Of a DNA stretch of 35,270 nt, positions 551 through 29,927 are shown one piece after another; position 1 is the stretch's first letter; each line of letters opens with the position of its first letter. The position numbers and the translations under genes are program-made. The notes under the pieces are model-generated. The model was given only the letters and a program-made list of their open reading frames with translations, was not told where the DNA came from and ran no database searches. The DNA is from Enorma phocaeensis (lineage in GTDB: Bacteria; Actinomycetota; Coriobacteriia; Coriobacteriales; Coriobacteriaceae), in assembly GCF_016901575.1 (NCBI RefSeq), contig NZ_JACJKQ010000020.1, positions 1 through 35,270 of the forward strand, in the 5' to 3' direction.

Positions 551-570
551 TTAGTCGGAAGGTGACAGTG

Positions 571-2082
571 ATGATTCCCATGATTGATCTATTTGCGGGG
601 CCAGGTGGGCTTGGCGAAGGTTTTTCCTCCCTACGAAATAAAGAAGGACAGCAAATCTTCCAAAGCGTCCTGTCGATTGAACGCGACGAGCAAGCCCACA
701 AAACATTGAGGCTGCGCGCCTACCTTAGAAAAATCCTCAGCTCGGACAACAAGGTGCCTGGTGTCTACGTAGACTATATGCGCGGACATGATTCGACGAC
801 GTTCGAATCTCTCATCTCCCTTAGGCCGAGTCTCTGGAAGGCGGCTTGCGGCGAAGCGGTGCGAGCCGAATTGAGAGAGGGCGACAACACTTATGTGGAG
901 CTCGGGAGGGATCGACTTATAAAGTGGAGAAAAGTGCACGGTGAAGAACCGTTGGTAATCATCGGAGGTCCACCATGCCAAGCGTACTCACTTGCCGGCA
1001 GGTCTAGAAGAGCCCACGACAAGGCCTTTGAGAACGATGAGAAACATACTCTTTACAAGTGCTACCTGTCGTTTATCAATAATCTACAGCCGGACATCTT
1101 CATTATGGAGAACGTTAAGGGACTGCTATCTGCCACCCATGGTGGTGAGAGAATGTTCTCCCGCATCGTTGATGACATGAGGGAAGCCGGATATGAGATT
1201 CGCTCTCTCGTAACCGAAAGTCCAAGTAACCCTCGAGATTTCGTCGTAAGGGCAGAAAGGTTCGGTATCCCCCAAACTCGTCACCGTGTCATCCTTATGG
1301 GAATCCGCAAAGACCTTAACTTAGCAACAACGATTTTGGCTGAGAAAGACGAGGTCAGCTTAGGGGAGGCTCTCGCCGGAATACCTAGTATCCGAAGTTC
1401 TTTTTCCAAAAGAAACAAGGAAATCGAAGCTGTCAGCTGGACGAAATATGTCGATTCCGCCGCAAAACGAATCATGGAAACCGCAGAAGGTCGAGGGTTG
1501 GCACCCGTCCTGGAGCGCGTCATCTCCAGCCATCCGCCAAGAAAGACCGAGAAGGGCGCAGTGACTTCGGAACTTGGGCCATATGACCGATGGTATCGGG
1601 GACGGCTTGGAAGAAGAGCCATATTGACCAATCACGTGGCGAGAGCGCATCTCGCCTCCGATCTCGATAGGTATTTGTTCTGTGCCGCGTACGCGGAGGT
1701 CAACGGCAATCCTCCCCACCTCGAAGACTTTCCACGGCAGTTGCTTCCAAACCATAAGAACGTCCAAGGGGCGGAGACAGACTCGTTTAAGTTCAATGAC
1801 AGATTCCGCGTGCAGCTTATTGATCGCCCCTCGACAACCATCACGTCGCACATCGCGAAAGATGGCCACTACTACATCCATCCCGATCCAATACAATGTC
1901 GAAGCTTGACTGTCCGCGAGGCAGCTAGGCTGCAGACCTTTCCCGACGATTATCTGTTTGAGGGAAACCGCACCTCACAGTTCACGCAAGTTGGCAACGC
2001 TGTTCCACCGCTGCTCGCGCAGCAGATTGCAGCCATCGTTGCCTGTGCGCTCGGTCAAAAACCGAAAGTCGATCAATCATGA
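571..2082 (+). CDS. drmMII: DNA (cytosine-5-)-methyltransferase, DISARM DrmMII-like
   Basis: This enzyme should transfer a methyl group from S-adenosylmethionine to C5 of cytosine, marking host DNA so that the adjacent DISARM-like machinery spares it. The 503-residue product has motif I (FAGPGG, residues 8-13), the catalytic motif IV PPCQ with Cys136, motif VI ENVKGL near 180, motif VIII QTRHRV near 235-240, a long variable target-recognition region at about 250-420, and the closing QVGNAVPP motif. GTG codons at 562 and 568 are possible starts, but ATG at 571 has GGAAGG (557-562) at a good distance, so it is preferred. The gene converges on the drmB-like gene with a 60-base gap, an arrangement that separates it from the drmE-drmA-drmB operon. 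The family is certain; the DISARM role follows from the neighbours. The recognised sequence cannot be read from the protein. Confidence 0.88.
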   Translation: MIPMIDLFAGPGGLGEGFSSLRNKEGQQIFQSVLSIERDEQAHKTLRLRAYLRKILSSDNKVPGVYVDYMRGHDSTTFESLISLRPSLWKAACGEAVRAELREGDNTYVELGRDRLIKWRKVHGEEPLVIIGGPPCQAYSLAGRSRRAHDKAFENDEKHTLYKCYLSFINNLQPDIFIMENVKGLLSATHGGERMFSRIVDDMREAGYEIRSLVTESPSNPRDFVVRAERFGIPQTRHRVILMGIRKDLNLATTILAEKDEVSLGEALAGIPSIRSSFSKRNKEIEAVSWTKYVDSAAKRIMETAEGRGLAPVLERVISSHPPRKTEKGAVTSELGPYDRWYRGRLGRRAILTNHVARAHLASDLDRYLFCAAYAEVNGNPPHLEDFPRQLLPNHKNVQGAETDSFKFNDRFRVQLIDRPSTTITSHIAKDGHYYIHPDPIQCRSLTVREAARLQTFPDDYLFEGNRTSQFTQVGNAVPPLLAQQIAAIVACALGQKPKVDQS

Positions 2083-2142
2083 GTTTAAATGCCGAGTCTG
2101 ATATGCCCTAATCGTGGAGATCAACACCTGCGGATTCGAATA

Positions 2143-3954
2143 CTAGAGCTCAAAATAGCCAGTAGCACCTCCAAGCGCATCGACCACGAGGAGTCTGTCT
2201 AGAAGCCTATTCCCATTTTCACAGCACGTTTCAGGTAGAAGCGCGCAATTATGGCAGGCGGCAAGATTGCAGGAGTCGGGGCCTTGCCCGTCGCTTTGAG
2301 AACAGACCGGATCGGAAGAGCACCACTCAGCGTCTTCCAGTGCATTCATTAATACATTCTCTAGCCTTCCCGGCCTCCCCATACGAACCAATCCGCCCAT
2401 AGACCCCTCGGAATCGCCAGATGCCGTATAGATAAGCACCCCGTACATTTCTCCGAGGTCCGTGTTGGACTCGCCTTGACGGCAGTAAAGTCTTTCCCGA
2501 ATAGACGAGCTGCCGTAACCGCATTCGTAGCAAAGACGGTTGATGAGCAGATGGGAAAAGGTGTGGATCATCACGAACTCGGGAGATACTGGTGTCGTAT
2601 TTCTGCCCCACCTGCTAGATGCTTTTGCATATGCCTGACTCAATTTCTCAGCTCGTTCGACCACTCTAGGACGCAATCTCCATTCCCTGATTCTTTCTGA
2701 ATTGAATTGCAGGAAGATGCCCTCGCCGAATACCTTTATAGCGGGTGCCCATTTGGTTCCGGATTCGAGAGAAAGCTGAAGGAGGCTGTCTCTCGTACTG
2801 ATGTTATCGCAAGGCTCAACACGACTAAAGCCGACGAACGCCCTCGTCTCCCGCAGCTTTCGCACGAGAGTTGCTCCTGCAAAGTACCTCGCCATCTCAG
2901 TCTGATACTGATCTATTGGAACACGCTTGGATGAATAGTCCGAATTGTCATCTCCTCTTCCAGAAACAAGCACTTCGTACTCTTCAAAACGGTAGTCGTC
3001 CTCTGATTCGGTCACATCCTCCGCAGATGATGCGCCGCGTTCACGGTGAAGCATCCATTCACGCTCCACCTCTTCAACAGAAAGCCTGGGGAGCTTCTGG
3101 TTGAGCCTATCGATTACGAGAACCTTGACATAATTAGGGTCGAGCTGCCCATCAGCGCTTTCGCCAGAAGCCAACAATTCCTCAACCTCATCCAGTCTCC
3201 TCTGGATGATAGAGCTCCTGTTAACTGGCGGAATCCAAATCGAGCTCTTGATATTCGGAAACCAAACATTGCTACCCCCCGCTTGGACAACCCTAAGTTC
3301 TTCGCCACAGGATACGGGATTGTTCCCGAGCCAAGGCCGGTTTCCCGAACAGAGTACTCCCACGCCTGATAGCGCGCCCTTCGCGGTGGCTCCCGCCATG
3401 CTTCTTGATTTACCACAGCTACATTCATATCGGACGGCTGCGAGGGTCGTGCTTGAGCCGCTCGACTTCCTAGTTATCCTATGGCCATCTCCAGAGGGGA
3501 CGCCTTGGTGCACCCATTCCAGAATGGGGAAATCTTCGATATGTCCATGGGGACATATCGCTACAAAACGCTCCGGGATCATGCGTACGCTTTTATGTGG
3601 CTTTTCTGGGGTCCCCTCGCAGAAATACTCGTTTTGCCAAGGAGAGTATTTCATCATCTGACCGCAGGTCGGACAGTAATGCCAGAGAGGGAACTGTACA
3701 GCTGGAATCGTAAGATGGGTGTCCTCTCCGTGAAGCTTTTCTGACGGAGGCTCTCGCAGCTCCTCGACGCCGAGATGTCTGCAGAGACGCTTATCGTCAA
3801 TGAGATATTGAGATGGATCGTTCCCAAACCTCCACATGTCTAAGCCAGCAATCATTACCGAGCGGTTTTTTGGGAGGGGAAGGATGGCACCAATACCCCA
3901 TGGAGAGATAAGCTGTCCTTTTCTTACGCTTTGCTCAAATTCGCTATATCCCAT
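2143..3954 (-). CDS. drmB: DISARM protein DrmB (DUF1998 domain)
   Basis: DrmB partners the DrmA helicase in DISARM; in the known system the DrmAB complex binds DNA and takes part in restriction of incoming phage DNA. The 603-residue product shows the DUF1998 signature HTFSHLL (464-470) followed by a Cys-rich tail (545-578) typical of this family. Further Cys pairs lie at CPTC (94-97), CPHGH (134-138) and CSC (178-180), probably binding zinc. The ATG start overlaps the end of the drmA-like gene by 11 bases (ATGGGATATAG), so translation is probably coupled. Length and N-terminal opening (GQLISPWGIGAIL) match DrmB-type DUF1998 proteins. The assignment to DISARM rests on the combination with DrmA, DrmE-like and methyltransferase genes; DUF1998 also occurs in other helicase pairs. 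Confidence 0.85.
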   Translation of the reverse strand: MGYSEFEQSVRKGQLISPWGIGAILPLPKNRSVMIAGLDMWRFGNDPSQYLIDDKRLCRHLGVEELREPPSEKLHGEDTHLTIPAVQFPLWHYCPTCGQMMKYSPWQNEYFCEGTPEKPHKSVRMIPERFVAICPHGHIEDFPILEWVHQGVPSGDGHRITRKSSGSSTTLAAVRYECSCGKSRSMAGATAKGALSGVGVLCSGNRPWLGNNPVSCGEELRVVQAGGSNVWFPNIKSSIWIPPVNRSSIIQRRLDEVEELLASGESADGQLDPNYVKVLVIDRLNQKLPRLSVEEVEREWMLHRERGASSAEDVTESEDDYRFEEYEVLVSGRGDDNSDYSSKRVPIDQYQTEMARYFAGATLVRKLRETRAFVGFSRVEPCDNISTRDSLLQLSLESGTKWAPAIKVFGEGIFLQFNSERIREWRLRPRVVERAEKLSQAYAKASSRWGRNTTPVSPEFVMIHTFSHLLINRLCYECGYGSSSIRERLYCRQGESNTDLGEMYGVLIYTASGDSEGSMGGLVRMGRPGRLENVLMNALEDAEWCSSDPVCSQSDGQGPDSCNLAACHNCALLPETCCENGNRLLDRLLVVDALGGATGYFEL

Positions 3955-6900
3955 CGTTGCCGCCTCCGTAATACTTCCCAGAAAGTAGTCTAACTACGCA
4001 GCTCGCGTCTACGCTTCGCATCGAGGACGGAACCTCCCAGATGCGCTCGATATTCCAGCTCTTGTTGACTTTCGAATCCGTTCGCATAATGAGCGGCGTA
4101 ATCTCGTCACTCGGTTTGCTCATATACTCCTGCGGTCGCCAACTGGCCCATTCGTCGATTAAGCGAGCTGCTTGTTTTTTTGTCGGTTCAACCTCGCTAT
4201 TGTCAACAACGCTTGTTCTGTCAACAATGATTTGCACGACTCTTTTGAATAGCTCAGGGCTCACATCCCTAGGGTCATCCTGTTTCTTGATGGGGCAAAG
4301 TTGACGTACCAACGCGACAAGGAGTGCCCTAAGGGCGCGGTCTCTTACCGGCGCGGAGAACGGAGTCACGCTCGTTGGTTCGACATTGCAGTAAAGGCGT
4401 GAGTGGTATCGCTGAAAGTCCTCGTAATGGGATTTATCGCGAGGTTTAGTTGGACTATAAATCGTAAATACGAGGCCAGGATTGGATCCGCGCCCAACAC
4501 GGCTGGATGCCTGAATATACTCGGATGTGGTTTTGGGCTGACCGTCAATGGTCATGAGGGCGAGCCTCGATATGTCCACCCCGACCGAAATCATGTTTGT
4601 TGCAAGGCAGATGTCAACCGCTCGGTCCTTCGAGTTGCTTCCAATGTATGGGGTTTCCAGCCGCTTTAGCGCAGGGGGGATTTCGTTACTGGGTACACGA
4701 CTGGTTAGCTCACATGAAGTAATCGAGCTTGCATATCTTCCATTACAGTTCGGGTCCTTTCTCCATCTACGTCGCTGCATCGCTTCGAGGTTCTCTGCGA
4801 TGTTTCCCGAAATCCAAGTGGCTGCCTGGCCCAGCTCCCTAAGGCTGTTGAAATAGGCTAAATTGGTTTTGTATCCATCTAAGACCTCAGGGCTTTCGTC
4901 ATTCGCAAAAACATCATGGGACAAGAGTAAGCTTGCGAACAGGTTGATGACGCTCATCGCCATGGAGCAGCCGGGAGCACATAGGCCGACATATAGCCTG
5001 CCGGGTCGTTCCGGATCCGACTCCTCCACTGCAAAGAAAGAATCGTCAGCATCGATTCCCGACGGTGGAAACTGCTCGACCAGTTCCGGGCTTCGACCGT
5101 ACAGTGAGGCGCATTGTTCTTTGGCATGACTGATTGTCGCGGTTGAACCGACAATTTTAGCTCGATGGTTATTAGCATCGGTGCAGAGAACGTCTATGGC
5201 CGTCTCATAGAATCCAACCATCGAACCCAATGGGCCAGAGATTAAATGCAGCTCATCTTGGATGATTAAGTCGGGCGGGGAGCTCGGGTTGTCACCTCTG
5301 CCAAAAAGATTTCGTGTTGCAGATGTCGTAGAAATCGCTGCAAACTTGTCAACAGTGCCGATAACAAGCGAGGGGCGCTGCTGATAAATATCGTCATCAA
5401 TGCAGAATATGGGAAGCTCTCCAGCACCGTGTTCAGAGAAGTGGCAACTGGGGTTACTGCAGACATAGCGAAAGTGAACCCCGCCCCTTCTACGTGCCCC
5501 GTGACGCACGTTTTCATATCCCAGAACGACGCGATCCCTCTTTCTTCTAGAACCCTCATCAACTATACCCATCTGAGCGCCGCACCAAGGGCATTTCAAA
5601 AGAACGAATGGATTATCGGAACTCTCCGAAGTTCTCATTTTCTTAAGCTGCTCGGATGCATCCTCTCGGCGATTTGGAGATGTTGAATTGCCGACCCACA
5701 ACCCGATTGAAAACTTCTCGGTTCCCAAGACTTCAGGCATGCGCTCGCGTATAGTTTCACAAGCGCAGATGAGCGATGAGGCGCGTTCGAACTGCTGCGT
5801 GGTTAGAAGTCTTAGGGTATACCGCATGAGAACAGTAACCCCTGCATTGTCCCTATCAAGAAGTCGCCTTATGAAAAGAGTGAATGCGGTCAGCCCTAAA
5901 TAGGCTTCGGTCTTGCCTCCTCCTGTGGGAAACCAGATCAGATCGATTATGTTGCGCTCGTCGCAATCCTCATCGCGCATTGACTTTAGATTCATAAGGA
6001 TGAAGGCAATCTGGAATGTTCTCCACCTCCCAAATACCCCATTGGTTGGCCAAGTGCTGCAATCATGCAAAATTGGCTTTACAGCCAACCCGACGTATCC
6101 GCCGTTTTTCCCACCTTCCCACTTTGCCAGAGGAAGTCTGTAATGCAGTTGCTGCAGAAGCATCGCTTCGTTCATGAGGGCGAAGGCTTGATAGGTTAAT
6201 CCGTCCGATTGCAGCAATCGGACGCCTTCTTTCATACGCAATAGGCATTCTTTACAAGATTTAATGTTTGATGTTGCCGCCGCAACCAAATCTGGAGGAA
6301 GTTCCACCGTACGCTGCTCAATTTCGGCAATCCAAGCTTCATATGCAGAACAGAGATTAGTTAATGAAACGATTGCTTGGCTCTTGTTCGATGTCGTACT
6401 CATCTCCATCATGTCAAACACAAGATGGGGCGCGCCTGGGACAACAGGCCTAACTTCGTAAGATGGCATGAAATCTATGCGCACCTCATGAACGCTCTTG
6501 GCAGATTGGTCCCAACAAGCAGCACAGCCGTGCCCAATTCCATAAGTTAGTGTATTTCTGTACAGGAGCTGGTTGTTCCAGTAGTCGAAATCATTTGACC
6601 GATCCTTAGGACTATCCAAAATAGGAAGGAGCGGTTCACTAGAGAATATCGACATCTCGGTTTGGAAGGCGCACTTCTCAGTGTCATCGTGTCCCTCGCT
6701 GCTTTGAGCAACATTTACAAGGCTGAATGTCAACATCCCTTTGGTTCTAGGATCGCTTGTCGTTCTGCTGGTCACAATAAGCTGCAGCTTTGCTTGTTCA
6801 GAATCGCTCGGAAGAGCTCTGACAAGTTGACGGCGCCCATCTGGTAACTCCGCCGAAGAGAAAGGCAGCTCTGCCTGATGGGGGCATCTACGATATTTGG

Positions 6901-7360
6901 TTTTTACTTTACCGCCATCCCGCTCGGAAGACTTAGTGTAAGTGGCATAGGCAATTATGGCGCGAATGCCAGAACAATTCGGAGCTACCCTAAGGGTAAT
7001 GCTTGCTGCAGATTGATGGTAGGTATTCGATAGACTTACCGGGTCATCCTGTGGCTCATCATCGGCAGATGCTCCCTGCAGCTCCGTTTCGAGCGAAGGA
7101 GGATTATTGTCCTCGTCCTCGTCCTCCTCAACCATTTCATCGTTTCCGCCATCGTCGATTCCAATCTCACCTAGCTCGTCGAGAATCCTCATCTGAGGAT
7201 ATAGAATTCCCACTGAATAACGCGAGAGCGGGGAGTCTGCATCATGTCGACGCTCGATGACCTCCTCCCCATCTTCAACGGGGTTTTCGTCAGGGCAAGG
7301 TCCAATGAACTCACTTTTCACAAGCTGGACGATTCGATTTCTGTAGCTGTTTTCAGACAT
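3944..7360 (-). CDS. drmA: DISARM helicase DrmA-like (SF2 helicase)
   Basis: This is a 1138-residue superfamily 2 helicase expected to act with DrmB as the core of DISARM. Visible motifs are Walker A FPTGGGKTEAYLG (477-489), the DEAH-box equivalent QDELHLI (701-707), motif III GSTATI (738-743), motif V ATNMISVGVDI (920-930) and motif VI QASSRVGRG (950-958). A CPWC / CSNPSC pair (590-639) may be a zinc-binding insert. An acidic stretch rich in Asp and Glu lies at 65-85. The frame stays open to 7606, but ATG at 7360 is chosen: it is preceded by GGAGGAG, and a longer product would overlap the upstream helicase gene by about 250 bases. The chosen start overlaps the upstream stop by 8 bases (ATGTCTGA). 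Codon use is less GC-rich than in the housekeeping genes to the right, consistent with transfer. Confidence 0.86.
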   Translation of the reverse strand: MSENSYRNRIVQLVKSEFIGPCPDENPVEDGEEVIERRHDADSPLSRYSVGILYPQMRILDELGEIGIDDGGNDEMVEEDEDEDNNPPSLETELQGASADDEPQDDPVSLSNTYHQSAASITLRVAPNCSGIRAIIAYATYTKSSERDGGKVKTKYRRCPHQAELPFSSAELPDGRRQLVRALPSDSEQAKLQLIVTSRTTSDPRTKGMLTFSLVNVAQSSEGHDDTEKCAFQTEMSIFSSEPLLPILDSPKDRSNDFDYWNNQLLYRNTLTYGIGHGCAACWDQSAKSVHEVRIDFMPSYEVRPVVPGAPHLVFDMMEMSTTSNKSQAIVSLTNLCSAYEAWIAEIEQRTVELPPDLVAAATSNIKSCKECLLRMKEGVRLLQSDGLTYQAFALMNEAMLLQQLHYRLPLAKWEGGKNGGYVGLAVKPILHDCSTWPTNGVFGRWRTFQIAFILMNLKSMRDEDCDERNIIDLIWFPTGGGKTEAYLGLTAFTLFIRRLLDRDNAGVTVLMRYTLRLLTTQQFERASSLICACETIRERMPEVLGTEKFSIGLWVGNSTSPNRREDASEQLKKMRTSESSDNPFVLLKCPWCGAQMGIVDEGSRRKRDRVVLGYENVRHGARRRGGVHFRYVCSNPSCHFSEHGAGELPIFCIDDDIYQQRPSLVIGTVDKFAAISTTSATRNLFGRGDNPSSPPDLIIQDELHLISGPLGSMVGFYETAIDVLCTDANNHRAKIVGSTATISHAKEQCASLYGRSPELVEQFPPSGIDADDSFFAVEESDPERPGRLYVGLCAPGCSMAMSVINLFASLLLSHDVFANDESPEVLDGYKTNLAYFNSLRELGQAATWISGNIAENLEAMQRRRWRKDPNCNGRYASSITSCELTSRVPSNEIPPALKRLETPYIGSNSKDRAVDICLATNMISVGVDISRLALMTIDGQPKTTSEYIQASSRVGRGSNPGLVFTIYSPTKPRDKSHYEDFQRYHSRLYCNVEPTSVTPFSAPVRDRALRALLVALVRQLCPIKKQDDPRDVSPELFKRVVQIIVDRTSVVDNSEVEPTKKQAARLIDEWASWRPQEYMSKPSDEITPLIMRTDSKVNKSWNIERIWEVPSSMRSVDASCVVRLLSGKYYGGGNDGI

Positions 7361-9047
7361 CGAAATACTCCTCCATGAGACTGAGGCGTTGTTTTTCCGC
7401 ACGTTCGTTTTCGAAAACCACCAGTTTGGTAGTTGCCCTCGACATTCCAACGTAATAGAGCGAAACGTTAGAAAAGGACTCGCAGTCGACGAGGAAAACA
7501 ACCTTGCTTTCAAGACCTTTGAATGCGGCGATCGAGGACACCTTAATTCCAGTGAATGCTGAGTTCGCCGGTAGTTCAGAAACGACACAGGAAGCGACGG
7601 ATTCACAAGGAGAACGCGGGGTCAGAATCACAACGTCGTCCCCTGATACACCTTCTTCCTCCAATCGATGAAATTGCTCCAGTATCTGTAGCCGTTCATC
7701 CTCCTCATCCGTCCATCTGATGTACGTGACAGGAGGACCAGCCATTGCAGCGGGAGGATAGGAACATGTAGTTCCACAGACAAGGTGAATAGCAATTCCG
7801 ATGTTTTTCGTATTGCGACAGTTTATGGTAAGCCTCGCACGAGCGAACGTGGAGCAATCTTCGACCATCGAAATCAGAGTCTCTGCGGTCTTTCCCGATT
7901 GGAAGATAGATTGCTTGCTAAAATCTCCAAACAACGCCCACCGCCCCCGGTCAAAGCCTTCACGAAGGATGTTGTCGAAGACGGGGAGATAGTTCTTGCG
8001 AACCAAATCCTGTGCTTCATCAACTATCAATCTATCAAATTGTGCAGAGCGATAGTGACTAATAAATAAATCTGGAAGAGTTCTGGAATAGAAGGTCGAA
8101 TCTAGAGAAGTGCGACGTTCGTTGACGTTGAAAAGCAGAAACGAGTGAAACGTCCCGATATAAGAACCCTTATTACGCGGACCGCATAACTGTGTATTGA
8201 GCCATTCTCCAAGAGCTTTATTGAAGCATAGCAGTGCCACCCGCTCGCCTCTTTCGATAGCCCTGCGGGCCATTTCAACGGCAAGTAGAGTCTTTCCAGT
8301 TCCAGCATAGCCCTCAACTAGTATTCGTTTGTTGTCCTCGAACATATCAAGGCATCGGAACTGCTCGTGAGTTAGCTGGTTAAGCTCGCGCTCTGTCTCG
8401 TTCAATTGAGTGGCAAGGAGCACGGGACAATCGAAGTCACCTCTAAGAACGTCCGCTATTTGTCTAACGTCTTGTCGAGTCGGAAGCCTCCTCTCGCCGA
8501 CATTTCCATTGATACGCACCTGCTTCTTTTGGGTGTAACGGGATACTCTCTTTATAAATACGCTGATGTTCGATTGCGCTATCTTTGATCGATCCCATAC
8601 CTGAACAAGATCGTAATCAGGTCCGACCACATCAAAATCGATATCTGGAAAAACCACTCCATATCCGAATAGAAGATGCGACACATCTGACTCGGAGGGC
8701 ATTCTACAATCAAGTTCTCGGATGAGAGAGAACATGCCTTCGCGCGCCTGGTCGAATGGGCCGCGAGCTTTTCGATTTGATTGACCAAACCTATCTGTGA
8801 AAGTCCACAGTCCACTTTCGCGAGACACTCGCCCGCCCTTGACCTCAAGACAAAAAACACCGAGATTGGGGGCGAGGACCACGAAATCCACCTCACCGAA
8901 TAGGAGCCTCTGATGCCGTGCAAGGCCGAGCGAATGGAGGACGACCCATCCATCGGTTTCAGGGTCATTCTGTAGCCACTCGAAGACTCGCCGTTCGGCG
9001 GTGCTCCTGACATCAGGAGATATTCTAGTGGGCAGCATGAGCGCCAT
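7353..9047 (-). CDS. NERD-domain nuclease / UvrD-like helicase fusion
   Basis: The 564-residue product combines an N-terminal NERD nuclease-related domain with a superfamily 1 helicase. NERD residues are GEVDFVV (51-57) and LEVKGG (67-72), the Asp/Glu-Lys metal-binding core of this restriction-like fold. The helicase part has EGYAGTGKT (245-252), VDEAQD (342-347) and GMSRAT (534-539). A GTG at 9053 overlaps the upstream stop, but ATG at 9047 has GAGGAG at workable spacing and is preferred. It sits second in the four-gene minus-strand operon, tightly coupled on both sides. Canonical class 2 DISARM has a phospholipase-D nuclease, DrmC, which is absent here; this protein may supply the nuclease activity instead, which is inference. 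Stand-alone NERD helicases exist, so independent membership in the island is the alternative. Confidence 0.85.
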   Translation of the reverse strand: MALMLPTRISPDVRSTAERRVFEWLQNDPETDGWVVLHSLGLARHQRLLFGEVDFVVLAPNLGVFCLEVKGGRVSRESGLWTFTDRFGQSNRKARGPFDQAREGMFSLIRELDCRMPSESDVSHLLFGYGVVFPDIDFDVVGPDYDLVQVWDRSKIAQSNISVFIKRVSRYTQKKQVRINGNVGERRLPTRQDVRQIADVLRGDFDCPVLLATQLNETERELNQLTHEQFRCLDMFEDNKRILVEGYAGTGKTLLAVEMARRAIERGERVALLCFNKALGEWLNTQLCGPRNKGSYIGTFHSFLLFNVNERRTSLDSTFYSRTLPDLFISHYRSAQFDRLIVDEAQDLVRKNYLPVFDNILREGFDRGRWALFGDFSKQSIFQSGKTAETLISMVEDCSTFARARLTINCRNTKNIGIAIHLVCGTTCSYPPAAMAGPPVTYIRWTDEEDERLQILEQFHRLEEEGVSGDDVVILTPRSPCESVASCVVSELPANSAFTGIKVSSIAAFKGLESKVVFLVDCESFSNVSLYYVGMSRATTKLVVFENERAEKQRLSLMEEYFDV

Positions 9048-9049
9048 AG

Positions 9050-11695
9050 TCACTCCTCGTATAGTTTTCCAGTCTTCCAGTCTGGGACCCGAAGGACGTG
9101 ATCTCGATCAATTGCCAGAATTCTGCATAGCTTTACAGCTCCAATACCATCGATAATGAGATCTACGGGGCTCCATATATCTTCCGGCTTAGAAAGGTCG
9201 CTTTCGACCATATACGACATGAATGCTTCAGCAAGCGTACTGCTTAGCTGACGTCCGGCAAGTCTATGTCTTGTCTGAATCTCGACCCCTGCTTGTGCAA
9301 TCTCTTCGGCGCGATCCACAAGCTGCTCATCATGTAGAGCTCTGCCGATAGCCCTGACGGTCTCTACGATCTCTGTGAGGTTTCGGCCTGGGGCAATTTT
9401 GTTGGAATCGTCCCTAAGACTGCGAAAAGCCTGCAGACCCTTGCTCATACCCCTGACGCTCAAAGCGTTGTACACACTACGATCGTCGTAGTGCCACAGC
9501 TCGTACAACCGACGAAGCCCATCTCTCCATGCGCTTGCGGTGCTACGAAGTTGTGGAGCAGCATCACCCATTAATTCGTCCGCAAGCTGCTCAATTAGGT
9601 CACGATCTGCTTCTTTTATGAGAACAAAAGATCCGACCGCAAGTCCCTCTGAATCTCCTACACGCTGGGCCTTCGCGAGTTTGGAGCCCCCTTCGATGAT
9701 GTCAGTTACGTCCGTGAGGTATGCATTCTCACGATAGAACGCAATGAAGTCCCCTGCGAAGCGAACCGGAATCGCTTGAACCGACGACTCCCTCTCCTCG
9801 CCCTTCGCTTCGTGCTTGGAATACGTCCTCTGTCTCCAAAGGTCCTCAGCATTATCAATAACCGTATCGGTATGATTATGCGCAACAGTCAGTGGTTTAG
9901 GAAGAGCTGGAAGGGTTCCGTTGAAGATAGCGTGCGTCTCACGCAGAACGCGATTGGAGTCATCAGTATCCAAAGCGTGCTTCTTCCATGCGTTTGTACG
10001 CGAGAGATACCAGCCTGTTTCACATCCTTCATAAAGAACAAGATTCACAATCTCTGCCGTACTCCCATTAAGCAGCGAGGTCATCTTTTCTTTTCCGAGC
10101 CAACCAACGACAATCACGCGTCCAACTAAAGGCGTTCGCATGGCCTTAAGCGCCGCATAGGGAAGCACGGTAAGCTTAGTTGTACCAAAGTCCGCCATAA
10201 ACTGAGACCAGTAACGTGTTGAAACTTCTGCTTCAATTGGGCTATTTACAACAAGCGTGACACTTCCGTTGTATGCCATATCTCTGATTCCATGATAAAT
10301 AGCCCGTTGCTTCTTATTATACTCAGATGAGGCTATCTCGGTGATGAGCAGAAATGAGCGATAGAAGAAATCTAAAAGCTTTGTTGAAATGAAGCCCTGT
10401 TGTCCCATTAGGGGAGCTCTGAGCTCTGAAATGGCCCTCAAGATGTCTGAAGACTCGAAAGAGAAGGGTGCCTGCGTCCTCAAAAGCTTAATAAAAATAC
10501 GCCAAAGGGCGGCACGGGTATCAGCTGCTATTTCGTTAGCGCTCTCCGTTCCGAAACAGCCGTCGATACCTTCCAGCAAGTTATAAAGATTATCCAATCG
10601 AGCGTCGGAGACAGTAGTGAGCTGGATACTCCCGTCTGTACAGTACTTGCATCGTAGATTGAGATTATGAAAAAAGGGAATCCGCTCATCCAGATTGCGC
10701 GGATGGACGTCCTCTGTGCTTTCGCTGCGCTCCAAAGTTCGTGAGTCCCAGCACCACTTTAGAAAACCCTCCTCGCGAAGCAAATCGACTGTCTCCACGC
10801 TCGCATTCGAAACGATCACATACATTGGAAGCTTCAATTGCTGCAGCTTCCTAAGCTCAGATATGTTGCTGCGAACGAAGGCCTGATAGTTATCAACATC
10901 GATAACTATTGCCTTTACGCTGCGGAGCTTGTCTTCGTCAAGCTGAAGCACATCATACAAATCCATTGCAGAAACGAGAGCGGGAGTCCCAGTATATTGC
11001 CCTTTGCCAATCGTCTCGTAAACAGCCTTGTCATTTTTGTCATAAGTGATTTGAGCACACAGAACAAGAGTGTTCAGCGGCATTTCGTTGATGAGTGTGT
11101 TGCGGAAAAAGTCCCTAGATCGTTTTAGAGGGCCCACTATGATGACAGATGAAGTGGCGAATGTGATTCCGCGATGTAACGATGCGGCCCAGTCGGAAGA
11201 ATTGCGTAGCTTGCGCCTTTCCTCGTTGAACTTTTTGGTCGGAGATAGTCTGCGCCCAGAGTCGGTCCTCTGAAGAACCAGGGACTCTTGGCGCGTAAGG
11301 GTATGTATCAAGGGATTTTTTGGGTTGTATCGAATAACAACGCCTCCGGTGTCAACGTCAGCGCGTACGTACTCGACAATAGCGTTTCCCATCTTCAATT
11401 TGTCACCGGGAGTGAAGGCGGCCGATCCGGGACCGATAAACAGGCGGTCCTCATCCACTAAGCGTAGCTGGTCGTCCATAGCAAGAAGGGCGGCTACTAC
11501 CTGACCGAAGGACTCTTTTGATGGTGTAGTGATGATGAGATTCTGCTTTTCGCAAATCGATGCGATGATGAGAGATAACGTATCAAGAACAATACAAGGG
11601 GGACGTTGTTGAGAGGTTGGATGATCGACGGATAAAGACGAAAAGGCGACGCCGCTCAATCGTTGGTCAAAGTTTGCTTGAAGTCGAAGATCCAT
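9050..11695 (-). CDS. drmE: Large DrmE-like protein of the DISARM operon
   Basis: The 881-residue product opens the DISARM-like operon, the place taken by drmE in class 2 loci. No catalytic motif is obvious. Hydrophobic strands followed by loops, such as SSVIIVGPLKRSR, IVIDVDNY and RVIVVGW, suggest two Rossmann-like lobes reminiscent of a degenerate helicase, and the C-terminal third contains GSFVLIKEADRDLIEQLAD-like sequence resembling nucleic-acid-handling defence proteins. CKYC lies mid-protein. A GTG at 11746 extends the frame, but it coincides with the predicted -10 box; ATG at 11695 lies about 44 bases after the predicted transcription start and has GGGAG upstream, so it is chosen. The stop overlaps the next gene region (GTGA). 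The DrmE name rests on size, position and partners rather than a diagnostic motif. Confidence 0.62.
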   Translation of the reverse strand: MDLRLQANFDQRLSGVAFSSLSVDHPTSQQRPPCIVLDTLSLIIASICEKQNLIITTPSKESFGQVVAALLAMDDQLRLVDEDRLFIGPGSAAFTPGDKLKMGNAIVEYVRADVDTGGVVIRYNPKNPLIHTLTRQESLVLQRTDSGRRLSPTKKFNEERRKLRNSSDWAASLHRGITFATSSVIIVGPLKRSRDFFRNTLINEMPLNTLVLCAQITYDKNDKAVYETIGKGQYTGTPALVSAMDLYDVLQLDEDKLRSVKAIVIDVDNYQAFVRSNISELRKLQQLKLPMYVIVSNASVETVDLLREEGFLKWCWDSRTLERSESTEDVHPRNLDERIPFFHNLNLRCKYCTDGSIQLTTVSDARLDNLYNLLEGIDGCFGTESANEIAADTRAALWRIFIKLLRTQAPFSFESSDILRAISELRAPLMGQQGFISTKLLDFFYRSFLLITEIASSEYNKKQRAIYHGIRDMAYNGSVTLVVNSPIEAEVSTRYWSQFMADFGTTKLTVLPYAALKAMRTPLVGRVIVVGWLGKEKMTSLLNGSTAEIVNLVLYEGCETGWYLSRTNAWKKHALDTDDSNRVLRETHAIFNGTLPALPKPLTVAHNHTDTVIDNAEDLWRQRTYSKHEAKGEERESSVQAIPVRFAGDFIAFYRENAYLTDVTDIIEGGSKLAKAQRVGDSEGLAVGSFVLIKEADRDLIEQLADELMGDAAPQLRSTASAWRDGLRRLYELWHYDDRSVYNALSVRGMSKGLQAFRSLRDDSNKIAPGRNLTEIVETVRAIGRALHDEQLVDRAEEIAQAGVEIQTRHRLAGRQLSSTLAEAFMSYMVESDLSKPEDIWSPVDLIIDGIGAVKLCRILAIDRDHVLRVPDWKTGKLYEE

Positions 11696-11861: not shown

Positions 11862-13168
11862 TTATAGCAGCCTTTCTATCAAACGCCCATTCCTCCCCGT
11901 ACCACCTCTCCGGGTATTCCACAGGCAGCATCCGCCCGGCTGCCACGCACCCATCATGTCTCGCCGCTTCTCGGCGCTCGTGTCCGTAACGACACTGTCA
12001 TCGAAGTTCGCCCGCTCGTCCGAAAACACAACGCCCAGTGACTGAAACGCCGCTATAACGCCCGGCATATCTCTGCGATCGCCATTTCCAGAACGTGCTC
12101 ATGTCGGCCGATGCTACACATCAGCGCCTAATTATCCGACGTCACCTCGGTGGCGGTCTCAAGTACCAGACCCCGTCGAAGTCAAGACAGCTGATCTTGA
12201 ACCCATACTGTTCGCCCCGCATCTGCAGCACCGTCCACAGGGTTTTCTTCTGCGCATCCGTCCTCAGCGCTGGTGCGAATTCAGTGCTAAACACCTTCTA
12301 AAACACAGTGCGATCCTTCCCGCCGAACGAGATGGAAACCATTCGACCGTGCCAATCCTCCTCTGGATTGAACATCACGTCGGACAGGAACAGGCGCATC
12401 TCTCTGTTAGCGAACTCTGAAATCATCGCGTCAGATGCGAGGTCTAACGCCCGCATGGCATCCATCCGCGAACACCGACCGCCATAAGGGCTCAAATCCG
12501 CCCGCATATTACCCACCGACTTAATAATCGCGAACGTGGACCACTCCAATCCCGTCTTGTACACCGGGCACATTCCGACAGGCACGACCTCGTCGCCGTA
12601 TCCGTCGAAGTACGCCGTCTCGATGCGATACTCACCCACATCCATCAAATGGCATCATTAACTGCTCGAGGACTTTGCTCTGGCGGAACGCCCGCGTCAC
12701 GAGCCCGCAATCCATCACGCCCTCCTCGTCCTAGGTGAGAGACACCGGCATATGAGCGTCATAGCACCGAATACGTGCTTTCCGCATGTCCGCGTCAGCC
12801 CGCAGTGCCCATGCGCTCGTGCCCATCCCGAACGCCTGGGCGACGATGGCCCGAGCCGCCGGAATGAACCCTGTCTCGGCAAAACATGCGGACAGCCAGT
12901 CCATGAATTCTTAGTCGCCACACACAGACTGCGCTATGTCATGTAATAGCCGCGGCCCCAACTCGCGGCACACTTGCATCTCCAGATGGACACTTCAACG
13001 GTGCATCTCATATAGCCCACTCACACCGCCTGCGTCCTTGTAACTGTAGAACGCTTCCTAAGCCTGTATCCAACCGTGCCGGCAACGTGCCCAAGGCTCC
13101 ATCGCCTTCGGCGGTAGCACAAACCCCAACCCCCGCAGGCGCTCGGAAACCCAACGCATGACGTCCAT
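11862..13168 (-). pseudogene. Degenerate phage portal protein gene
   Basis: Read on the minus strand, pieces in order match the Gp6-like portal family. They are an N-terminal part starting MDVMRWVSERL, a part around EFMDWLSACFAETGFIP, a middle part with IETAYFDGYGDE and MRALDLASDAM, a part reading FAPALRTDAQKK, then ETATEVTSDN and CSIGRHEHVLEMAI, and a C-terminal FDDSVVTDTSAEKRRDM. Portal proteins form the capsid ring through which phage DNA is packaged. The frame is broken by several stops (for example near 13060, 12910, 12735, 12300 and 12120) and by shifts near 12650 and 12170. No terminase or capsid genes remain beside it, so this is the relic of a prophage. It is clearly non-functional. 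Confidence 0.8.
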
Positions 13169-13465
13169 AACACCCGTCACTGTGACCCCTGACCTTTCAA
13201 CCATAACCATCCCTAGCATCATTCCAGCCCGTCATGCGCGGAGGCCGACCTCCCGACCGCAACAATACACATACAGCCCACAGAGAGCGCCCATCGCGCG
13301 CACGGCGAACGCATCGGAGAAACAATCATTGCCATTCATCCTGCACACCGCACCTGTGGGGTCATCGAGGGCCAAGCCTCAGGTTCCAGAAGCACAGCCC
13401 AACTTGCACGAACTACTCAATTTCCGATGCATGGACATCTCATTTCCCTGTGCGCGTTTGGACTA
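13169..13465. other. No gene seen between portal and transposase relics
   Basis: Short frames occur on both strands but none has a ribosome site or a recognisable motif. The stretch is likely leftover prophage or transposon DNA. A small palindrome GTCAC-T-GTGAC lies just upstream of the portal relic's start. Confidence 0.4.
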
Positions 13466-13940
13466 TTATCTATTGCACATCAACACCTTGAGCAGCGCGG
13501 CGGGGCAGAACTTGTCCGAAAAGAGCCGCTCGTTCTCAAGAAACACCTGGTCGAGAATCGCGGCGGCACGGTTCTTGAGCACCGAGGGCTCGAAGCGCTT
13601 ACAGCACAGGCAATCGGCGATTAACGAGACGTCAATGCTGTCGGTCTTGGCGGGGCGAACGGCACCCACCCTGCGCCGCGCGTCGACCTATTGATGATGC
13701 AGACCTCGAGACCGCTGGGATGTAGGTAGTCGAAGAGTGCCACCCAGCAATTGCCAATCGTCTCCATGCCGACCAGTGCGCTGTCCGGCGAGCCCCCTTC
13801 CCCGCCGCGAGCCTCTCGAGCAACCGCTCGAGCCCCATCTAGGCGTTCTTGAAGTCGAACGGCCCGACAACCGCCTCGTCACCATTCATCGCTGTGGCAA
13901 CGTAGGGGCGCTTTGCGACGTCGATGCCGATGTAGAACAT
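13466..13940 (-). pseudogene. Degenerate IS110-family transposase
   Basis: The minus-strand reading starts with MFYIGIDVAKRPYVATAMN at 13940, preceded by GGAGGGG, which is the typical IS110 opening with the first Asp of the DEDD catalytic site. After an in-frame stop near 13840 and frame changes, it continues with LVGMETIGNCWVALFDYLHP and then KTDSIDVSLIADCL and LKNRAAAILDQVF, all characteristic of the DEDD_Tnp_IS110 domain. The C-terminal serine-containing domain is missing. The gene cannot make an active transposase. It lies directly behind the portal relic and has probably been decaying together with it. Confidence 0.78.
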
Positions 13941-15035
13941 ACCCCTCCGTCCTCTCGGCGGGTAGAAAGTCCTCCTTCGGAATCCGAGGGCATAACCCTC
14001 CCAAGAGACCCGGCTCCGGACACCATCCTATCTATCCCGCATCCTCCTGCGGACAGGAGGGACGATTCTTTCCTCAGCTGCCGAACCTCAGGGACGCACA
14101 CCCCCTCTGCCCCATTCGCGCCCTTTATCCTATATTCGCGCCCACGGATAAAGAAGCGCGACCGCTGCACGAGAAGCGGCAACATCAATAATGGAAGAAC
14201 GACCACTATGAAAACTGCACACGAGAGGGCGGCGCGGACGCCAACGTCCGCGCCGACTCCGCGCTCGCCTCGACAACATGCGACACGTATGTCTCGGGAG
14301 CCTCTGCCCTCAAAGTCGAGCGCACTTCCGACCTAGGCGCGAAGTCAACGAGCCGCTCTGCGTGTCGCGGCCGCGCGCTTTGTTGGACGCCTAGGCGGAC
14401 CCCGAGCTCGTGCGCACAGACCACCAACGCGCGACGGAACTGCTCATCGACTCCGACCACCACGACACGGAGTTACTCGAGGTCGCGGGGTCGGCGGCGC
14501 TCGCCCACCTTTCACTCGCATGGGAGCACCGGTACCGAACCCACACGCACAACGTCTAGAAGCGTATGGACAGCAAGGTCAAGTGGAGAACCAGAGTGAT
14601 GCAGATGTTCTCCCGACGGCGTCGTCGCCGCGTCTCGTGAGTGCAGGTCGCTTGCACCACTATTTGTGACGTGATTATCCAGACACTGGTCTACAAATAT
14701 CCCACATCCATGCAAATACACTTATGCAAAGTCGATGAATGCAGTTTTTGCCTTACATGAGAACAGAACAGTCAGACGGCCATTTTATTCCAGATTGAAT
14801 CAGTGACTGCCCGTCTCCGTTGCGCCTCCCTGATAAAGCGCTGTAGAGCGGTTGTCAAAAAGACTCCGAATTGAAGCCAGAGCTCGCAGAGAAACTGAAC
14901 GAGGTCAAGGATAGGTGCGTAACCCAACGAAGCGATGAGTGCGCATTTTGGTGCATTCACCGACAGGCAGCCGTGAGCTTCTCTCCGCCTTCGTAGAATG
15001 GTGGGCAATGTCCATTCGTCGAGCTGGGAGGAACG
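13941..15035. other. About 1.1 kb without a recognisable gene
   Basis: Frames on both strands are broken by stops and show no family motif. One plus-strand frame between about 14390 and 14580 reads as a plausible former coding segment interrupted by stops, with LVRTDHQRATELLIDSDHH-like sequence, but I cannot name it. The end of the stretch (15026-15032) holds the GGGAGGA ribosome site of the next gene. Confidence 0.4.
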
Positions 15036-20821: not shown

Positions 20822-22600
20822 CTACTCACACAGCTTCCTGTATGCAGCCCGCACCGTTTCGGCCATAAGCAAGCGGCGCTGCCTCAGGAAATCCTGGTAC
20901 TCCATCTCCTCGAAGCCTAAGGGGAGCGCATTCTGCTTGCAGGTCAACGCATAGCCCGTCTCGCCGAGTTTTTGCCGAAATTCGCCGACGTACTCCGCGG
21001 GCGCTTTGTCCCCGATGTCGATGTTCGTGTTGTAGTCGAGGTAGGTGAAGTTTGCAATTTGGTTGCGATCCCTGTCGTTGTCGTAGCCAATCTGGGTGAG
21101 GTAGTTCTTGGGGAAGATATGGTGCTTGTCGATGGAGGTCTTGCCCCCGCTCGAACCGATGATGAAATGCTGGGACAATGGAGACGTGCTGAAAAGCATC
21201 GGCGTTCCGAGAACGATAAGAGACGCAACGTAGCCGAACCACGCGGGCGAGTTCGCTGAAGACCCCTCCAAGCTGCTCGGCAGCGTATAGGTGAAGTAGT
21301 CATCGGTAAGAACAGTCGAGATTGTGGTCTCAAGGTAAGAGACAAAACCTTCGGCGTCCTTCACATCGCGCAGGTCGGCGAACTGCTTCTCTACCTCCGA
21401 CTCGGTCGAACCCGTATAGAAGCCAGTGACAGTCGCCATGAAGATCCACTTGGTGATTACCTGGTTGAGCCTCATCGGGGACACCTTGTACGAGTACTTC
21501 CCGACAAGATAGAGCACGTAGCTGAACACGACCGCATTGGTGGAGGCAACAATCGAGCCCTTCAGGTAGCCAGCGCGAACAAAGAGATTAAGGAAGGCGT
21601 GCCAGTTGTTCAAGTCGGTCGCCAAACCTAGCGCCTCCTTGAACTTGGCAAGGTTCTCCTCCCGCGTCTCTGGTGACGTGACCCCGGTCTGCAGGTTCTT
21701 TCCCCGTAGGAGCATGTAGGCGTACTTCAGTCGGGCGCGGTGGAAGCCGACGCCGACGGCGATGCGAATAAGATGCGATGGGTCAACGGCGATAATCTGA
21801 TTGTAGGGCGTATGATCAGCAGGAATCCTCGACTCCGCGCAGAAGGCCCCAATTTTATCGTGAACCCCGTTGTCGAACACGGCGAGCAGCGTCTCTATGA
21901 AGTTTTTCTCGGTGAGCTTCGTTCCGCCCGAGTTCACGCGCACGAATATCTCTGCGACGTCCTCCTCGTCAGCCCTCGAGTTTATCTTCAACGTCGGAAG
22001 CGTGTAGATTCCCAAGTTCAGGAGGTCGTTGATGTTCTGCTCTATGACGTCTTCTTCCTCATCGGTCAAAGACTCCCTACCATTCTTCTCTCTGCCTTCG
22101 TTCGCCTGCTTGATGAATGCTTTCCTGAACTTGGACACAGAATGGTCTTTGTCGGCCTCGAACACTGAACTGATGGAACTTACCCACTCGGAATTTCGCT
22201 CATACGCCTGTGTCCAGACCGCGAACTCCCTCGTCAGAGGATTGAATGATATCCGAATCTTTCTCTCCGTGTAATTCTTGTCCCGGATAGAGACGCCATG
22301 CATCGCGGCAAGAAGCGCAGTTAAGCGTTGTTGTCCATCGATGACAAGATCATCTGGCTGCTTATATATCTTCTCGTTTCGACCGATTTGCCCGACATTC
22401 TCGTAGTTCTCTGGAGAAGACCAGAGCATGATGTAGCCGATAGGGTACCCCTTCATCATCGAGTCAAGAAGGTTGCGAACCTTGCTGTCCGGCCAAACGA
22501 AGGGCCTCTGCAGGTCGGGAAGGCCTATCTTGCCGATTTCTACATCGCGCAGAAGATCCTCAACTTTGCTAGGAATGTTGTCGAACAGTTCTTTACCCAT
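20822..22600 (-). CDS. GmrSD-type restriction protein (DUF262 and DUF1524)
   Basis: The 592-residue protein joins a ParB-like DUF262 domain to an HNH-type DUF1524 domain in one chain, the layout of single-polypeptide type IV (modification-dependent) GmrSD restriction enzymes, which use nucleotide hydrolysis to cut glucosylated or otherwise modified phage DNA. Visible motifs are LPDLQRPFVW (27-36), the nucleotide-binding IDGQQRLTAL (87-96), and the nuclease motif DKHHIFPKNYL (491-501) followed by NQIANFTYLD. Key residues are intact, so it is probably active. It starts 12 bases after a truncated upstream frame, with AAGG upstream, so it may be co-transcribed with that relic. It is a second, independent defence gene in the island. 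The exact target modification is unknown. Confidence 0.85.
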   Translation of the reverse strand: MGKELFDNIPSKVEDLLRDVEIGKIGLPDLQRPFVWPDSKVRNLLDSMMKGYPIGYIMLWSSPENYENVGQIGRNEKIYKQPDDLVIDGQQRLTALLAAMHGVSIRDKNYTERKIRISFNPLTREFAVWTQAYERNSEWVSSISSVFEADKDHSVSKFRKAFIKQANEGREKNGRESLTDEEEDVIEQNINDLLNLGIYTLPTLKINSRADEEDVAEIFVRVNSGGTKLTEKNFIETLLAVFDNGVHDKIGAFCAESRIPADHTPYNQIIAVDPSHLIRIAVGVGFHRARLKYAYMLLRGKNLQTGVTSPETREENLAKFKEALGLATDLNNWHAFLNLFVRAGYLKGSIVASTNAVVFSYVLYLVGKYSYKVSPMRLNQVITKWIFMATVTGFYTGSTESEVEKQFADLRDVKDAEGFVSYLETTISTVLTDDYFTYTLPSSLEGSSANSPAWFGYVASLIVLGTPMLFSTSPLSQHFIIGSSGGKTSIDKHHIFPKNYLTQIGYDNDRDRNQIANFTYLDYNTNIDIGDKAPAEYVGEFRQKLGETGYALTCKQNALPLGFEEMEYQDFLRQRRLLMAETVRAAYRKLCE

Positions 22601-22943: not shown

Positions 22944-23521
22944 TCAGCACCACCGTATCGGGTTGCCCGTTTCGATCGAGGCAACGAACAGCCTCCTGAT
23001 TCGCTCGGCGGTCCCGTATTTCCCCTCGTAGAGGAACGGCGCCCTCTCGGAGGTGACGAGAAACTCTCGCTCGGTCTTCGGGGCGCCTTCAGGACCAATG
23101 GAGTCGAAGGCCTCCGTCGTCGCATCGATGTCCAGACAGACGATTCTCATCCGTTGGTGGTCGCTTTCATCCGGCTCCCCGCACGGAACCTGCCTGAAGT
23201 GCGTGGTCTCCACCGGCTGCTGTCCCGCATGCCAGAAGCGAACCTTTTCGTCGACCATGCACGCCTCGTGCAAGGGCCCATCATCCAAGGGAACGACCGC
23301 GCCCCCACCGATGTCCAGATTGTCTCTCCCGACTCCGCATCTTGCAAAACCCACTCGTCGACATCGACGACCTTTTCGATGAACCGGTCGAGCTTCGCAT
23401 CAAGCTTGCGCGAGGAGAGATAGCCCTCCGTGTCGACATACACGTCCTCCAAAGGGACGGGGCCCGGCCTGAGCCTCCCCTCTTCAAAACATCTGCAGCG
23501 AACCGACGCATCGAGACCCAT
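22944..23521 (-). pseudogene. Frameshifted conserved hypothetical gene
   Basis: The first part, from ATG at 23521, reads MGLDASVRCRCFEEGRLRPG and continues LEDVYVDTEGYLSSRKLD, the opening of a common uncharacterised bacterial family (MGLDAxVxCxC). After a frameshift between about 23310 and 23340 the same protein resumes as DNLDIGGGAVVPLDDG, continues through MRIVCLDIDATTEAFDS, and ends ETGNPIRWC. One shift is enough to join both halves, so this is either a recent inactivation or a sequencing error. The function of the family is not known to me. Confidence 0.55.
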
Positions 23522-23696
23522 ACTTGCTCCCATCTCACTTGCCTTTTCATCAATCTACCAGCCCGGGCGGACACATCCCTCAAAGCAAGCATCGTCGAAA
23601 GCGAACAGGCCCCACATAGTGCGTCACCGGCCACGTTGTCGCAGCGCGCCTCAAACCACGGCGATGCCCCCGCCCCCTCCCGCCATCGCGTCCAGC

Positions 23697-24254: not shown

Positions 24255-24343
24255 CGCCTGCGCCTCCCGTACACATCGGCCTCTCTGTTCGGTATCGAAC
24301 CGGCATGGCCCAATGTCCGTTGCCGCTCCGCACCTTTCGCACG

Positions 24344-24372
24344 ATACTAGTTTACGAACATCTTGTTCGCAA
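24344..24372 (-). promoter_or_regulatory. Predicted promoter of the TetR gene
   Basis: TTGCGA (24367-24372) and TAGTAT (24344-24349) on the minus strand are separated by 17 bases, each with four of six consensus matches. The palindrome at 24355-24369 lies inside it, suiting autorepression. Confidence 0.4.
24355..24369. promoter_or_regulatory. Palindromic candidate TetR operator
   Basis: CGAAC, ATCTT, GTTCG is a perfect 5-5-5 inverted repeat midway in the divergent tetR/ATPase control region. A second, shorter one, GGTA-N7-TACC, follows at 24374-24388. TetR proteins usually bind palindromes of about 15 bases or more, so this is the best operator candidate here. Confidence 0.5.
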
Positions 24373-24424
24373 TGGTATGCAACGTACCGAACTTTACCTC
24401 CGCTCATCCGAAGGAGGAAACGCC

Positions 24425-26314: not shown

Positions 26315-26371
26315 GACCACGAGCCGAGAAGACGCCCGCCAGAAGCGAACGGGAAAGTGCGTCACCTTAAT

Positions 26372-26401
26372 AAAAAACGGGCCCGCATGATGCAGGCCCG
26401 T
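26372..26401 (-). terminator. Intrinsic terminator after tRNA-Ala
   Basis: ACGGGCC (26377-26383) and GGCCCGT (26395-26401) form a stem with the extra inner pairing GCAT/ATGC, and six A residues at 26372-26377 become a U-tract on the minus strand. It lies just past the 3' end of the tRNA gene. It may also act on the convergent ATPase transcript. Confidence 0.75.
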
Positions 26402-26413
26402 CCAAATTGCTTG

Positions 26414-29857: not shown

Positions 29858-29878
29858 GACGTCTCCTTCCCGGGGCAG

Positions 29879-29906: not shown

Positions 29907-29927
29907 TCGATATGCGCTTCGCGCGAG

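What the first reader, a model, noticed from the sequence alone, without database searches (positions are those of the whole stretch)
571..11695. DISARM-like locus with a NERD-helicase in place of DrmC
The set methyltransferase (5mC) + DrmE-like + DrmA + DrmB fits class 2 DISARM as described, but no phospholipase-D (DrmC) gene is present. Instead a NERD nuclease fused to a UvrD-like helicase is translationally coupled inside the operon. This suggests a DISARM subtype in which a different nuclease-helicase does the DNA degradation step.
Basis: partly seen in the sequence, partly recalled or inferred. Interest (0 to 1): 0.78.

Follow-up and report, generated by a model that had tools for sequence, protein, structure and literature searches.

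The report
DISARM operon with NERD nuclease-helicase
This is a bacterial anti-phage operon of the DISARM kind that lacks the usual nuclease gene drmC and carries in its place a nuclease fused to a DNA helicase; the same swap recurs in about 30 other bacterial and plasmid records from many phyla and was never seen together with drmC, so it is probably a real DISARM variant and offers a candidate for DISARM's unidentified DNA-cutting enzyme.

Summary
Observation confirmed. A four-gene minus-strand operon, drmE-like / NERD nuclease-SF1 helicase / drmA / drmB (11695-2143), converges on a plus-strand C5-cytosine methyltransferase (562-2082). All junctions overlap or nearly do. No drmC is in the window, and the genome's only PLD-domain hit is polyphosphate kinase. 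About 30 records with the NERD helicase beside drmAB were collected; in the 31 loci measured it lies on the same strand, usually within 20 nt. In DrmB surveys that did not use the NERD gene, drmC and the NERD helicase never shared a locus (34 genome loci: 15 drmC, 6 NERD, 0 both; 54 plasmid records: 18, 10, 0). All 16 drmC-linked DrmAs fall in one clade; the window falls in another. Nuclease and helicase catalytic residues are invariant wherever readable. Limits: the NERD gene is common, not universal, in DrmE-type loci (4 of 7); the association arose several times; canonical class 2 (drmE with drmC) was not sampled; anti-phage activity and DNA degradation are inferred. Verdict: a DrmC-less DISARM lineage with its own nuclease-helicase, a new variant of a known kind; no description was found in the searchable literature.

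The parts
562..2082 (+). C5-cytosine DNA methyltransferase, DrmMII-like (ATG at 571; GTG at 562 possible)
   Evidence: PADLOC DrmMII 302 bits; Pfam DNA_methylase 4e-51
2143..3954 (-). drmB (DUF1998/MZB protein, 603 aa)
   Evidence: NF038324 464 bits; PDB 7s9v_B E 2.5e-79
3944..7360 (-). drmA (YprA-type SF2 helicase, 1138 aa)
   Evidence: NF038325 930 bits; PDB 7s9v_A E 5e-140; start overlaps the stop of the upstream gene
7353..9047 (-). NERD nuclease fused to SF1 (UvrD/Schlafen-group-3-like) helicase, 564 aa
   Evidence: PADLOC RTasNERD-Hel 133 bits; PF09848 and UvrD-type helicase hits; AlphaFold2 pLDDT 84.5, Foldseek SLFN11/UPF1/Dna2/UvrD
8514..9011 (-). NERD (PD-(D/E)xK) domain, about residues 15-180; catalytic E20, E54, D56, E70-x-K72, Q102 (numbered from the GTG at 9053)
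   Evidence: alignment A1 and the DISARM-only alignment, where these are invariant in every sequence in which the region is readable
7389..8411 (-). SF1 helicase domain, about residues 215-555; Walker A G248-T255, Walker B DEAQD 345-349, R413, KG 512-513, R539
9050..11695 (-). drmE-like gene, 881 aa; C-terminal half shared with the ~520 aa gene upstream of the NERD helicase in relatives
   Evidence: NF038316 263 bits; hhalign 98.9% to DrmE residues ~433-874 for the relatives' gene

Best explanation
A horizontally acquired, DrmC-less DISARM operon in which a NERD-SF1 nuclease-helicase occupies the nuclease slot. Shown by sequence: the gene set, the operon structure, absence of drmC and of any detected PLD nuclease in the genome, recurrence and mutual exclusion with drmC, and conservation of both catalytic centres. 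Inferred: DrmMII methylates host DNA; DrmAB loads on unmodified DNA with a 5' single-stranded overhang (as reported for Serratia DrmAB in PMC9142583) and unwinds it; the NERD helicase takes the exposed strand, translocates and cuts it, in the manner of a Dna2-type or AddAB-type helicase-nuclease; DrmE, in which no Walker A motif is evident, acts as an adaptor or sensor. Separate confidences: real DrmC-less DISARM variant with the NERD helicase as a genuine component 0.85; that protein acts as the system's nuclease 0.6; exact handover from DrmAB 0.35.
For: Family hits. Overlapping junctions. Recurrence: about 30 records with the NERD helicase beside drmAB in Actinomycetota, Acidobacteriota, Verrucomicrobiota, Mycoplasmatota, Bacillota, Deinococcota, Pseudomonadota and Chloroflexota; same strand in all 31 loci measured, typically under 20 nt apart. 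DrmB surveys made without the NERD gene: Actinomycetota 24 loci including the window (9 drmC, 5 NERD, 0 both), Clostridia 7 (4, 1, 0), Bacilli 3 (2, 0, 0); plasmids 54 (18, 10, 0); pooled hypergeometric P of no overlap 0.0009. DrmA tree: all 16 drmC loci in one clade (96), window in a 13-member clade with 10 NERD loci (99). NERD-helicase tree: window in an 11-member all-DISARM clade (96). DrmA and NERD-helicase distances correlate. Catalytic residues invariant. Positive control: one genome with a NERD locus also holds two other DrmB loci whose PLD gene is beside drmB, while its NERD locus has none.
Against: The NERD helicase is missing from 3 of 7 DrmE-type loci (L153, L155, L159), so DrmE-DrmAB can exist without it, although L155 carries an IS21 element next to drmB. 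The exclusion statistic is not corrected for phylogeny: drmC is largely one lineage. drmC detection rested on a model from three class 1 DrmC proteins plus an HKD motif check. Canonical class 2 (B. paralicheniformis type, drmE with drmC) was not sampled. No functional data.
Confidence: 0.6

Rival explanations
1. The NERD helicase is a separate defence or repair gene that travels with drmAB as a passenger and adds its own activity without being part of the DISARM mechanism.
For: NERD-SF1 proteins occur without drmAB (57 of 94 in the tree) and beside other systems; some DrmE-type loci lack the gene (L153, L155, L159).
Against: Position between drmE and drmA with overlapping or near-overlapping reading frames; an all-DISARM NERD clade spanning several phyla; correlated distances with DrmA; exclusion with drmC.
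Confidence: 0.15
2. The NERD helicase cleaves RNA or tRNA, as Schlafens do, and acts as an alternative effector rather than as the nuclease that degrades phage DNA.
For: Best fold matches are Schlafen 11/14, then UPF1, Dna2 and UvrD; Pfam Schlafen group 3 helicase match.
Against: The shared part is mainly the SF1 helicase core; the nuclease here is a NERD (PD-(D/E)xK) domain, usually a DNA nuclease fold, not the Schlafen core nuclease (domain knowledge). DrmAB is a DNA machine.
Confidence: 0.12
3. DISARM here needs no nuclease: DrmAB blocks phage DNA physically, and the absence of drmC has no functional meaning.
For: DrmC is reported as dispensable and often missing (PMC9142583); several drmAB loci in the surveys have neither drmC nor the NERD helicase.
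Against: Strict conservation of the NERD catalytic residues in DISARM-linked copies implies that the nuclease is used.
Confidence: 0.1

Closest known systems
DISARM class 2 (drmMII, drmA, drmB, drmC, drmE)
   Same: DrmMII-type methyltransferase, DrmA, DrmB and a DrmE-family protein
   Different: no drmC; NERD-SF1 nuclease-helicase inside the operon; DrmE matches the broad DrmE_fam model but not the DISARM_DrmE equivalog or any PADLOC model; a rule requiring DrmC (PMC9252829) would not call it
DISARM class 1 (drmD, drmMI, drmA, drmB, drmC)
   Same: DrmA-DrmB core
   Different: no drmD, no adenine methyltransferase drmMI and no drmC in the window; DrmA in a different clade
TALON (YprA helicase with a NERD nuclease; PMC12458937)
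   Same: a YprA-family helicase paired with a NERD-type nuclease
   Different: TALON belongs to the ARMADA-like branch and has TPR-CSD and TBP genes; the window has a split DrmA/DrmB and a DrmE-like gene
ARMADA type II (PMC12458937)
   Same: YprA-family helicase plus an SF1 helicase carrying an N-terminal nuclease domain
   Different: there the SF1 protein is GajB-like with a RelE-type RNase domain; here NERD, with DrmAB and DrmE
RTasNERD-Hel (NERD-helicase of reverse-transcriptase defence loci, PADLOC)
   Same: same domain architecture, best PADLOC hit (133 bits)
   Different: no reverse transcriptase in the operon here; the partner is drmAB

Membership tests
DISARM (core) | DrmA helicase | tested here: met
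   NF038325 930.5 bits (cut-off 950, narrowly under), PADLOC DrmA 727 bits, 7s9v_A E 5e-140; placed among DrmA proteins in the tree
DISARM (core) | separate DrmB with DUF1998/MZB | tested here: met
   NF038324 464 bits (cut-off 240), 7s9v_B E 2.5e-79
DISARM (core) | DNA methyltransferase at the locus | tested here: met
   DrmMII 302 bits; convergent, so not in the same transcript
DISARM (core) | protects against phage | not testable with these tools
   needs a plaque assay
DISARM class 2 (PADLOC rule: DrmA, B, C, E, MII) | drmC (PLD nuclease) | tested here: not met
   no NF038319 match in the genome; only PLDc_2 hit is polyphosphate kinase 1. The window begins at base 1 of its contig, but the genome is rated 99.8% complete
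DISARM class 2 (PADLOC rule: DrmA, B, C, E, MII) | DrmE | tested here: inconclusive
   NF038316 DrmE_fam 263 bits (cut-off 80), but NF038323 DISARM_DrmE and PADLOC models did not match
DISARM class 2 (PADLOC rule: DrmA, B, C, E, MII) | DrmMII cytosine methyltransferase | tested here: met
   PADLOC DrmMII 302 bits
TALON | ARMADA-like YprA fused to an inactive RNase H fold | tested here: not met
   helicase is DISARM DrmA with a separate DrmB
TALON | TPR-CSD and TBP genes in the operon | tested here: not met
   operon neighbours are drmE-like and drmB, with no room for other genes between them

The most novel reading that the evidence does not exclude
DISARM is a modular platform in which the DrmAB sensor-helicase is paired by lineage with different nuclease effectors: drmC in one DrmA clade, NERD-SF1 nuclease-helicases recruited several times in others. 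The window's lineage is a separate DISARM class whose dedicated nuclease-helicase performs DNA degradation, which would explain DrmC-less operons without borrowing a host PLD nuclease.
Probability: 0.5. Interest if true: 0.75.

Novelty: new variant of a known kind. Interest (0 to 1): 0.6.

Why it matters
How DISARM destroys phage DNA is unresolved: DrmC is reported as dispensable and often absent, and a borrowed host PLD nuclease was proposed (PMC9142583). Here is an operon with its own nuclease-helicase in a genome in which no PLD nuclease was detected, plus some 30 relatives. That makes the question directly testable with one catalytic-residue mutant, and it shows that detection rules requiring drmC miss a widespread set of DISARM loci.

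Tried and rejected
Split-DrmE idea: the ~330 aa plus ~520 aa gene pair upstream of the NERD helicase in relatives looked like a split DrmE. The ~520 aa gene does match the DrmE C-terminal half (98.9%), but the ~330 aa gene does not match the N-terminal half (2.5%), so only half is supported. L136 was first scored as a NERD locus, then dropped because its NERD protein groups with non-DISARM actinobacterial copies. PLD-SNF2 proteins near L072, L034 and the D. psychrotolerans locus are separate large proteins, not DrmC. DrmE structure: mean pLDDT 45; weak SF2-helicase-like matches for ~445-585 (best Z 8.8) are close to what unrelated models give and are not used as evidence. Tblastn of DrmE against plasmids and a viral-contig scan with it found nothing; a viral scan with the NERD helicase found only 4 distant relatives. 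The first DrmA profile had one row, the window's, in the wrong frame; it was rebuilt before the survey counts, but the first gene-order listing used the earlier one. The DISARM_DrmE equivalog (NF038323) was sought in four records without a hit; nothing rang in the controls either, so that search shows nothing.
Full report
What is there. Window 1-12 kb holds a convergent pair of transcription units. On the minus strand, in order: drmE-like (11695-9050, 881 aa), NERD nuclease-SF1 helicase (9047-7353, 564 aa), drmA (7360-3944, 1138 aa), drmB (3954-2143, 603 aa). On the plus strand, a C5-cytosine methyltransferase (562-2082). The helicase ATG lies 2 nt after the drmE stop, the drmA ATG overlaps the helicase stop, and drmB overlaps drmA; each of these three starts has a purine-rich stretch upstream. 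Family assignments: DrmB 464 bits over a cut-off of 240; DrmA 930 bits against a cut-off of 950 but 727 bits in PADLOC; DrmE_fam 263 bits over 80; DrmMII 302 bits. DrmA and DrmB match the cryo-EM DrmAB, 7s9v.

No drmC. The DrmC_I model finds nothing in the genome. The only PLDc_2 match is polyphosphate kinase 1. So in this genome, rated 99.8% complete, no PLD nuclease was detected, and the suggestion that DISARM borrows a host PLD nuclease (PMC9142583) has no candidate here.

The inserted protein. It has an N-terminal NERD domain with E20, E54, D56, E70-x-K72 and Q102, and a C-terminal SF1 helicase with all main motifs. In 36 DISARM-linked homologues, these nuclease residues are invariant wherever the region is readable (gaps in two to four rows, at least two of them trimmed by my start-codon rule), and the Walker lysine, the D345, E346 and D349 of the Walker B motif, R413, KG512-513 and R539 are invariant in all. 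AlphaFold2 gives mean pLDDT 84.5; the best structural matches are SLFN11/14, UPF1, Dna2 and UvrD, which supports an SF1 nuclease-helicase but does not tell DNA from RNA.

Recurrence. Plasmid searches and a scan of GTDB species genomes gave about 30 records with this protein beside drmA and drmB. Architectures differ. Methyltransferase - drmE or its two-gene counterpart - NERD - A - B: window, Rhodococcus opacus pROB02, Deinococcus psychrotolerans, Microtetraspora, Corynebacterium, Thermoanaerobaculia, Verrucomicrobiaceae, Pseudohongiella, a Mollicutes MAG (the methyltransferase is not beside every one of them). A - B - NERD with an SF1 helicase upstream: mostly alphaproteobacteria. A - B - SF1 - unknown - NERD: mostly gammaproteobacteria. 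Methyltransferase - DrmE - A - B - NERD: Lachnospiraceae L072 and Clostridia genome G561. In the 31 loci measured the gene is on the same strand as drmA or drmB, usually within 20 nt.

Test of replacement. Because the above set was collected through the NERD gene, I also sampled DrmB without using it: 396 Actinomycetota, 391 Clostridia and 346 Bacilli genomes, annotated around each hit. Of 34 informative loci (the window among them), 15 have drmC, 6 the NERD helicase, 13 neither, none both. Of 54 plasmid records with DrmB, 18 have drmC, 10 the NERD helicase, none both. P of no overlap: 0.020 for genomes (0.036 without the window), 0.041 for de-duplicated plasmids, 0.0009 pooled; these are not corrected for relatedness. 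In the DrmA tree all 16 drmC loci fall in one clade of 22 (SH-aLRT 96) and the window in a clade of 13 (99) with 10 NERD loci, so much of the exclusion is at lineage level. In the NERD tree the window's clade of 11 is entirely DISARM-linked (96), while other DISARM associations lie elsewhere: several recruitments. DrmA and NERD-helicase distances correlate (rho 0.50, p 0.03 in the window clade; 0.49, p 0.0002 overall).

Limits. Among seven DrmE-type loci (window, L016, L072, L154, L153, L155, L159), four carry the NERD helicase and none drmC; L016 and L072 were found through the NERD gene, so four of seven is an upper estimate. The gene is frequent, not obligate. Canonical class 2 with the NF038323-type DrmE was not sampled. 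DrmC detection used a profile from three class 1 proteins, checked by an HKD motif search; divergent drmC could be missed. The DrmE fold remains unknown.

Mechanism. Best reading: the methyltransferase marks self; DrmAB loads on unmodified 5'-overhang DNA as in PMC9142583; the NERD helicase degrades the exposed strand; DrmE adapts or senses. Only gene content, conservation and exclusion are shown. All functional steps are inference.

Relation to known systems and novelty. The core DISARM features are met; class 2 as defined by PADLOC (PMC9252829) is not, because drmC is absent. Bell et al. (PMC12458937) mention many uncharacterized DISARM-like classes; in the passages read, NERD nucleases are described only in TALON. 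Text searches found no account of NERD helicases in DISARM, but supplements and subscription papers, including the original DISARM paper, could not be read.

Noticed in passing
window 20822-22600: A GmrSD-type (DUF262) restriction protein, 110 bits to PF03235, about 9 kb from the DISARM operon: a defence island.
   Followed up: no
window 1-23000 versus 23000-35270: GC content is about 0.47-0.59 up to 23 kb and 0.62-0.70 beyond, with a tRNA-Ala at 26414-26489: the island looks horizontally acquired.
   Followed up: partly
window 12046-14700: Stretch upstream of drmE with only short frames and no family match, perhaps decayed mobile DNA.
   Followed up: no
L105 10974-16974: A class 1-type DISARM on a Sphingomonas parapaucimobilis plasmid where a type I-E CRISPR-Cas operon directly follows drmB and no drmC is annotated.
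   Followed up: no
L024, L026, L029, L032, L033, L034, L003: drmAB followed by a ~390 aa SF1 helicase and a ~520 aa protein of unknown family, then in most a NERD helicase: a further recurrent drmAB architecture.
   Followed up: partly
L027, L038, L040 (about 5200-10000): A 1400-1600 aa ResIII/DEAD-type helicase protein precedes the NERD helicase and drmAB.
   Followed up: no
L155 9993-12138: An IS21 element sits beside drmB where the related loci L072 and L154 carry the NERD helicase.
   Followed up: no
L011, L013: NERD helicases beside very large DEAD helicases (1600-2100 aa), possibly other YprA-type systems.
   Followed up: no
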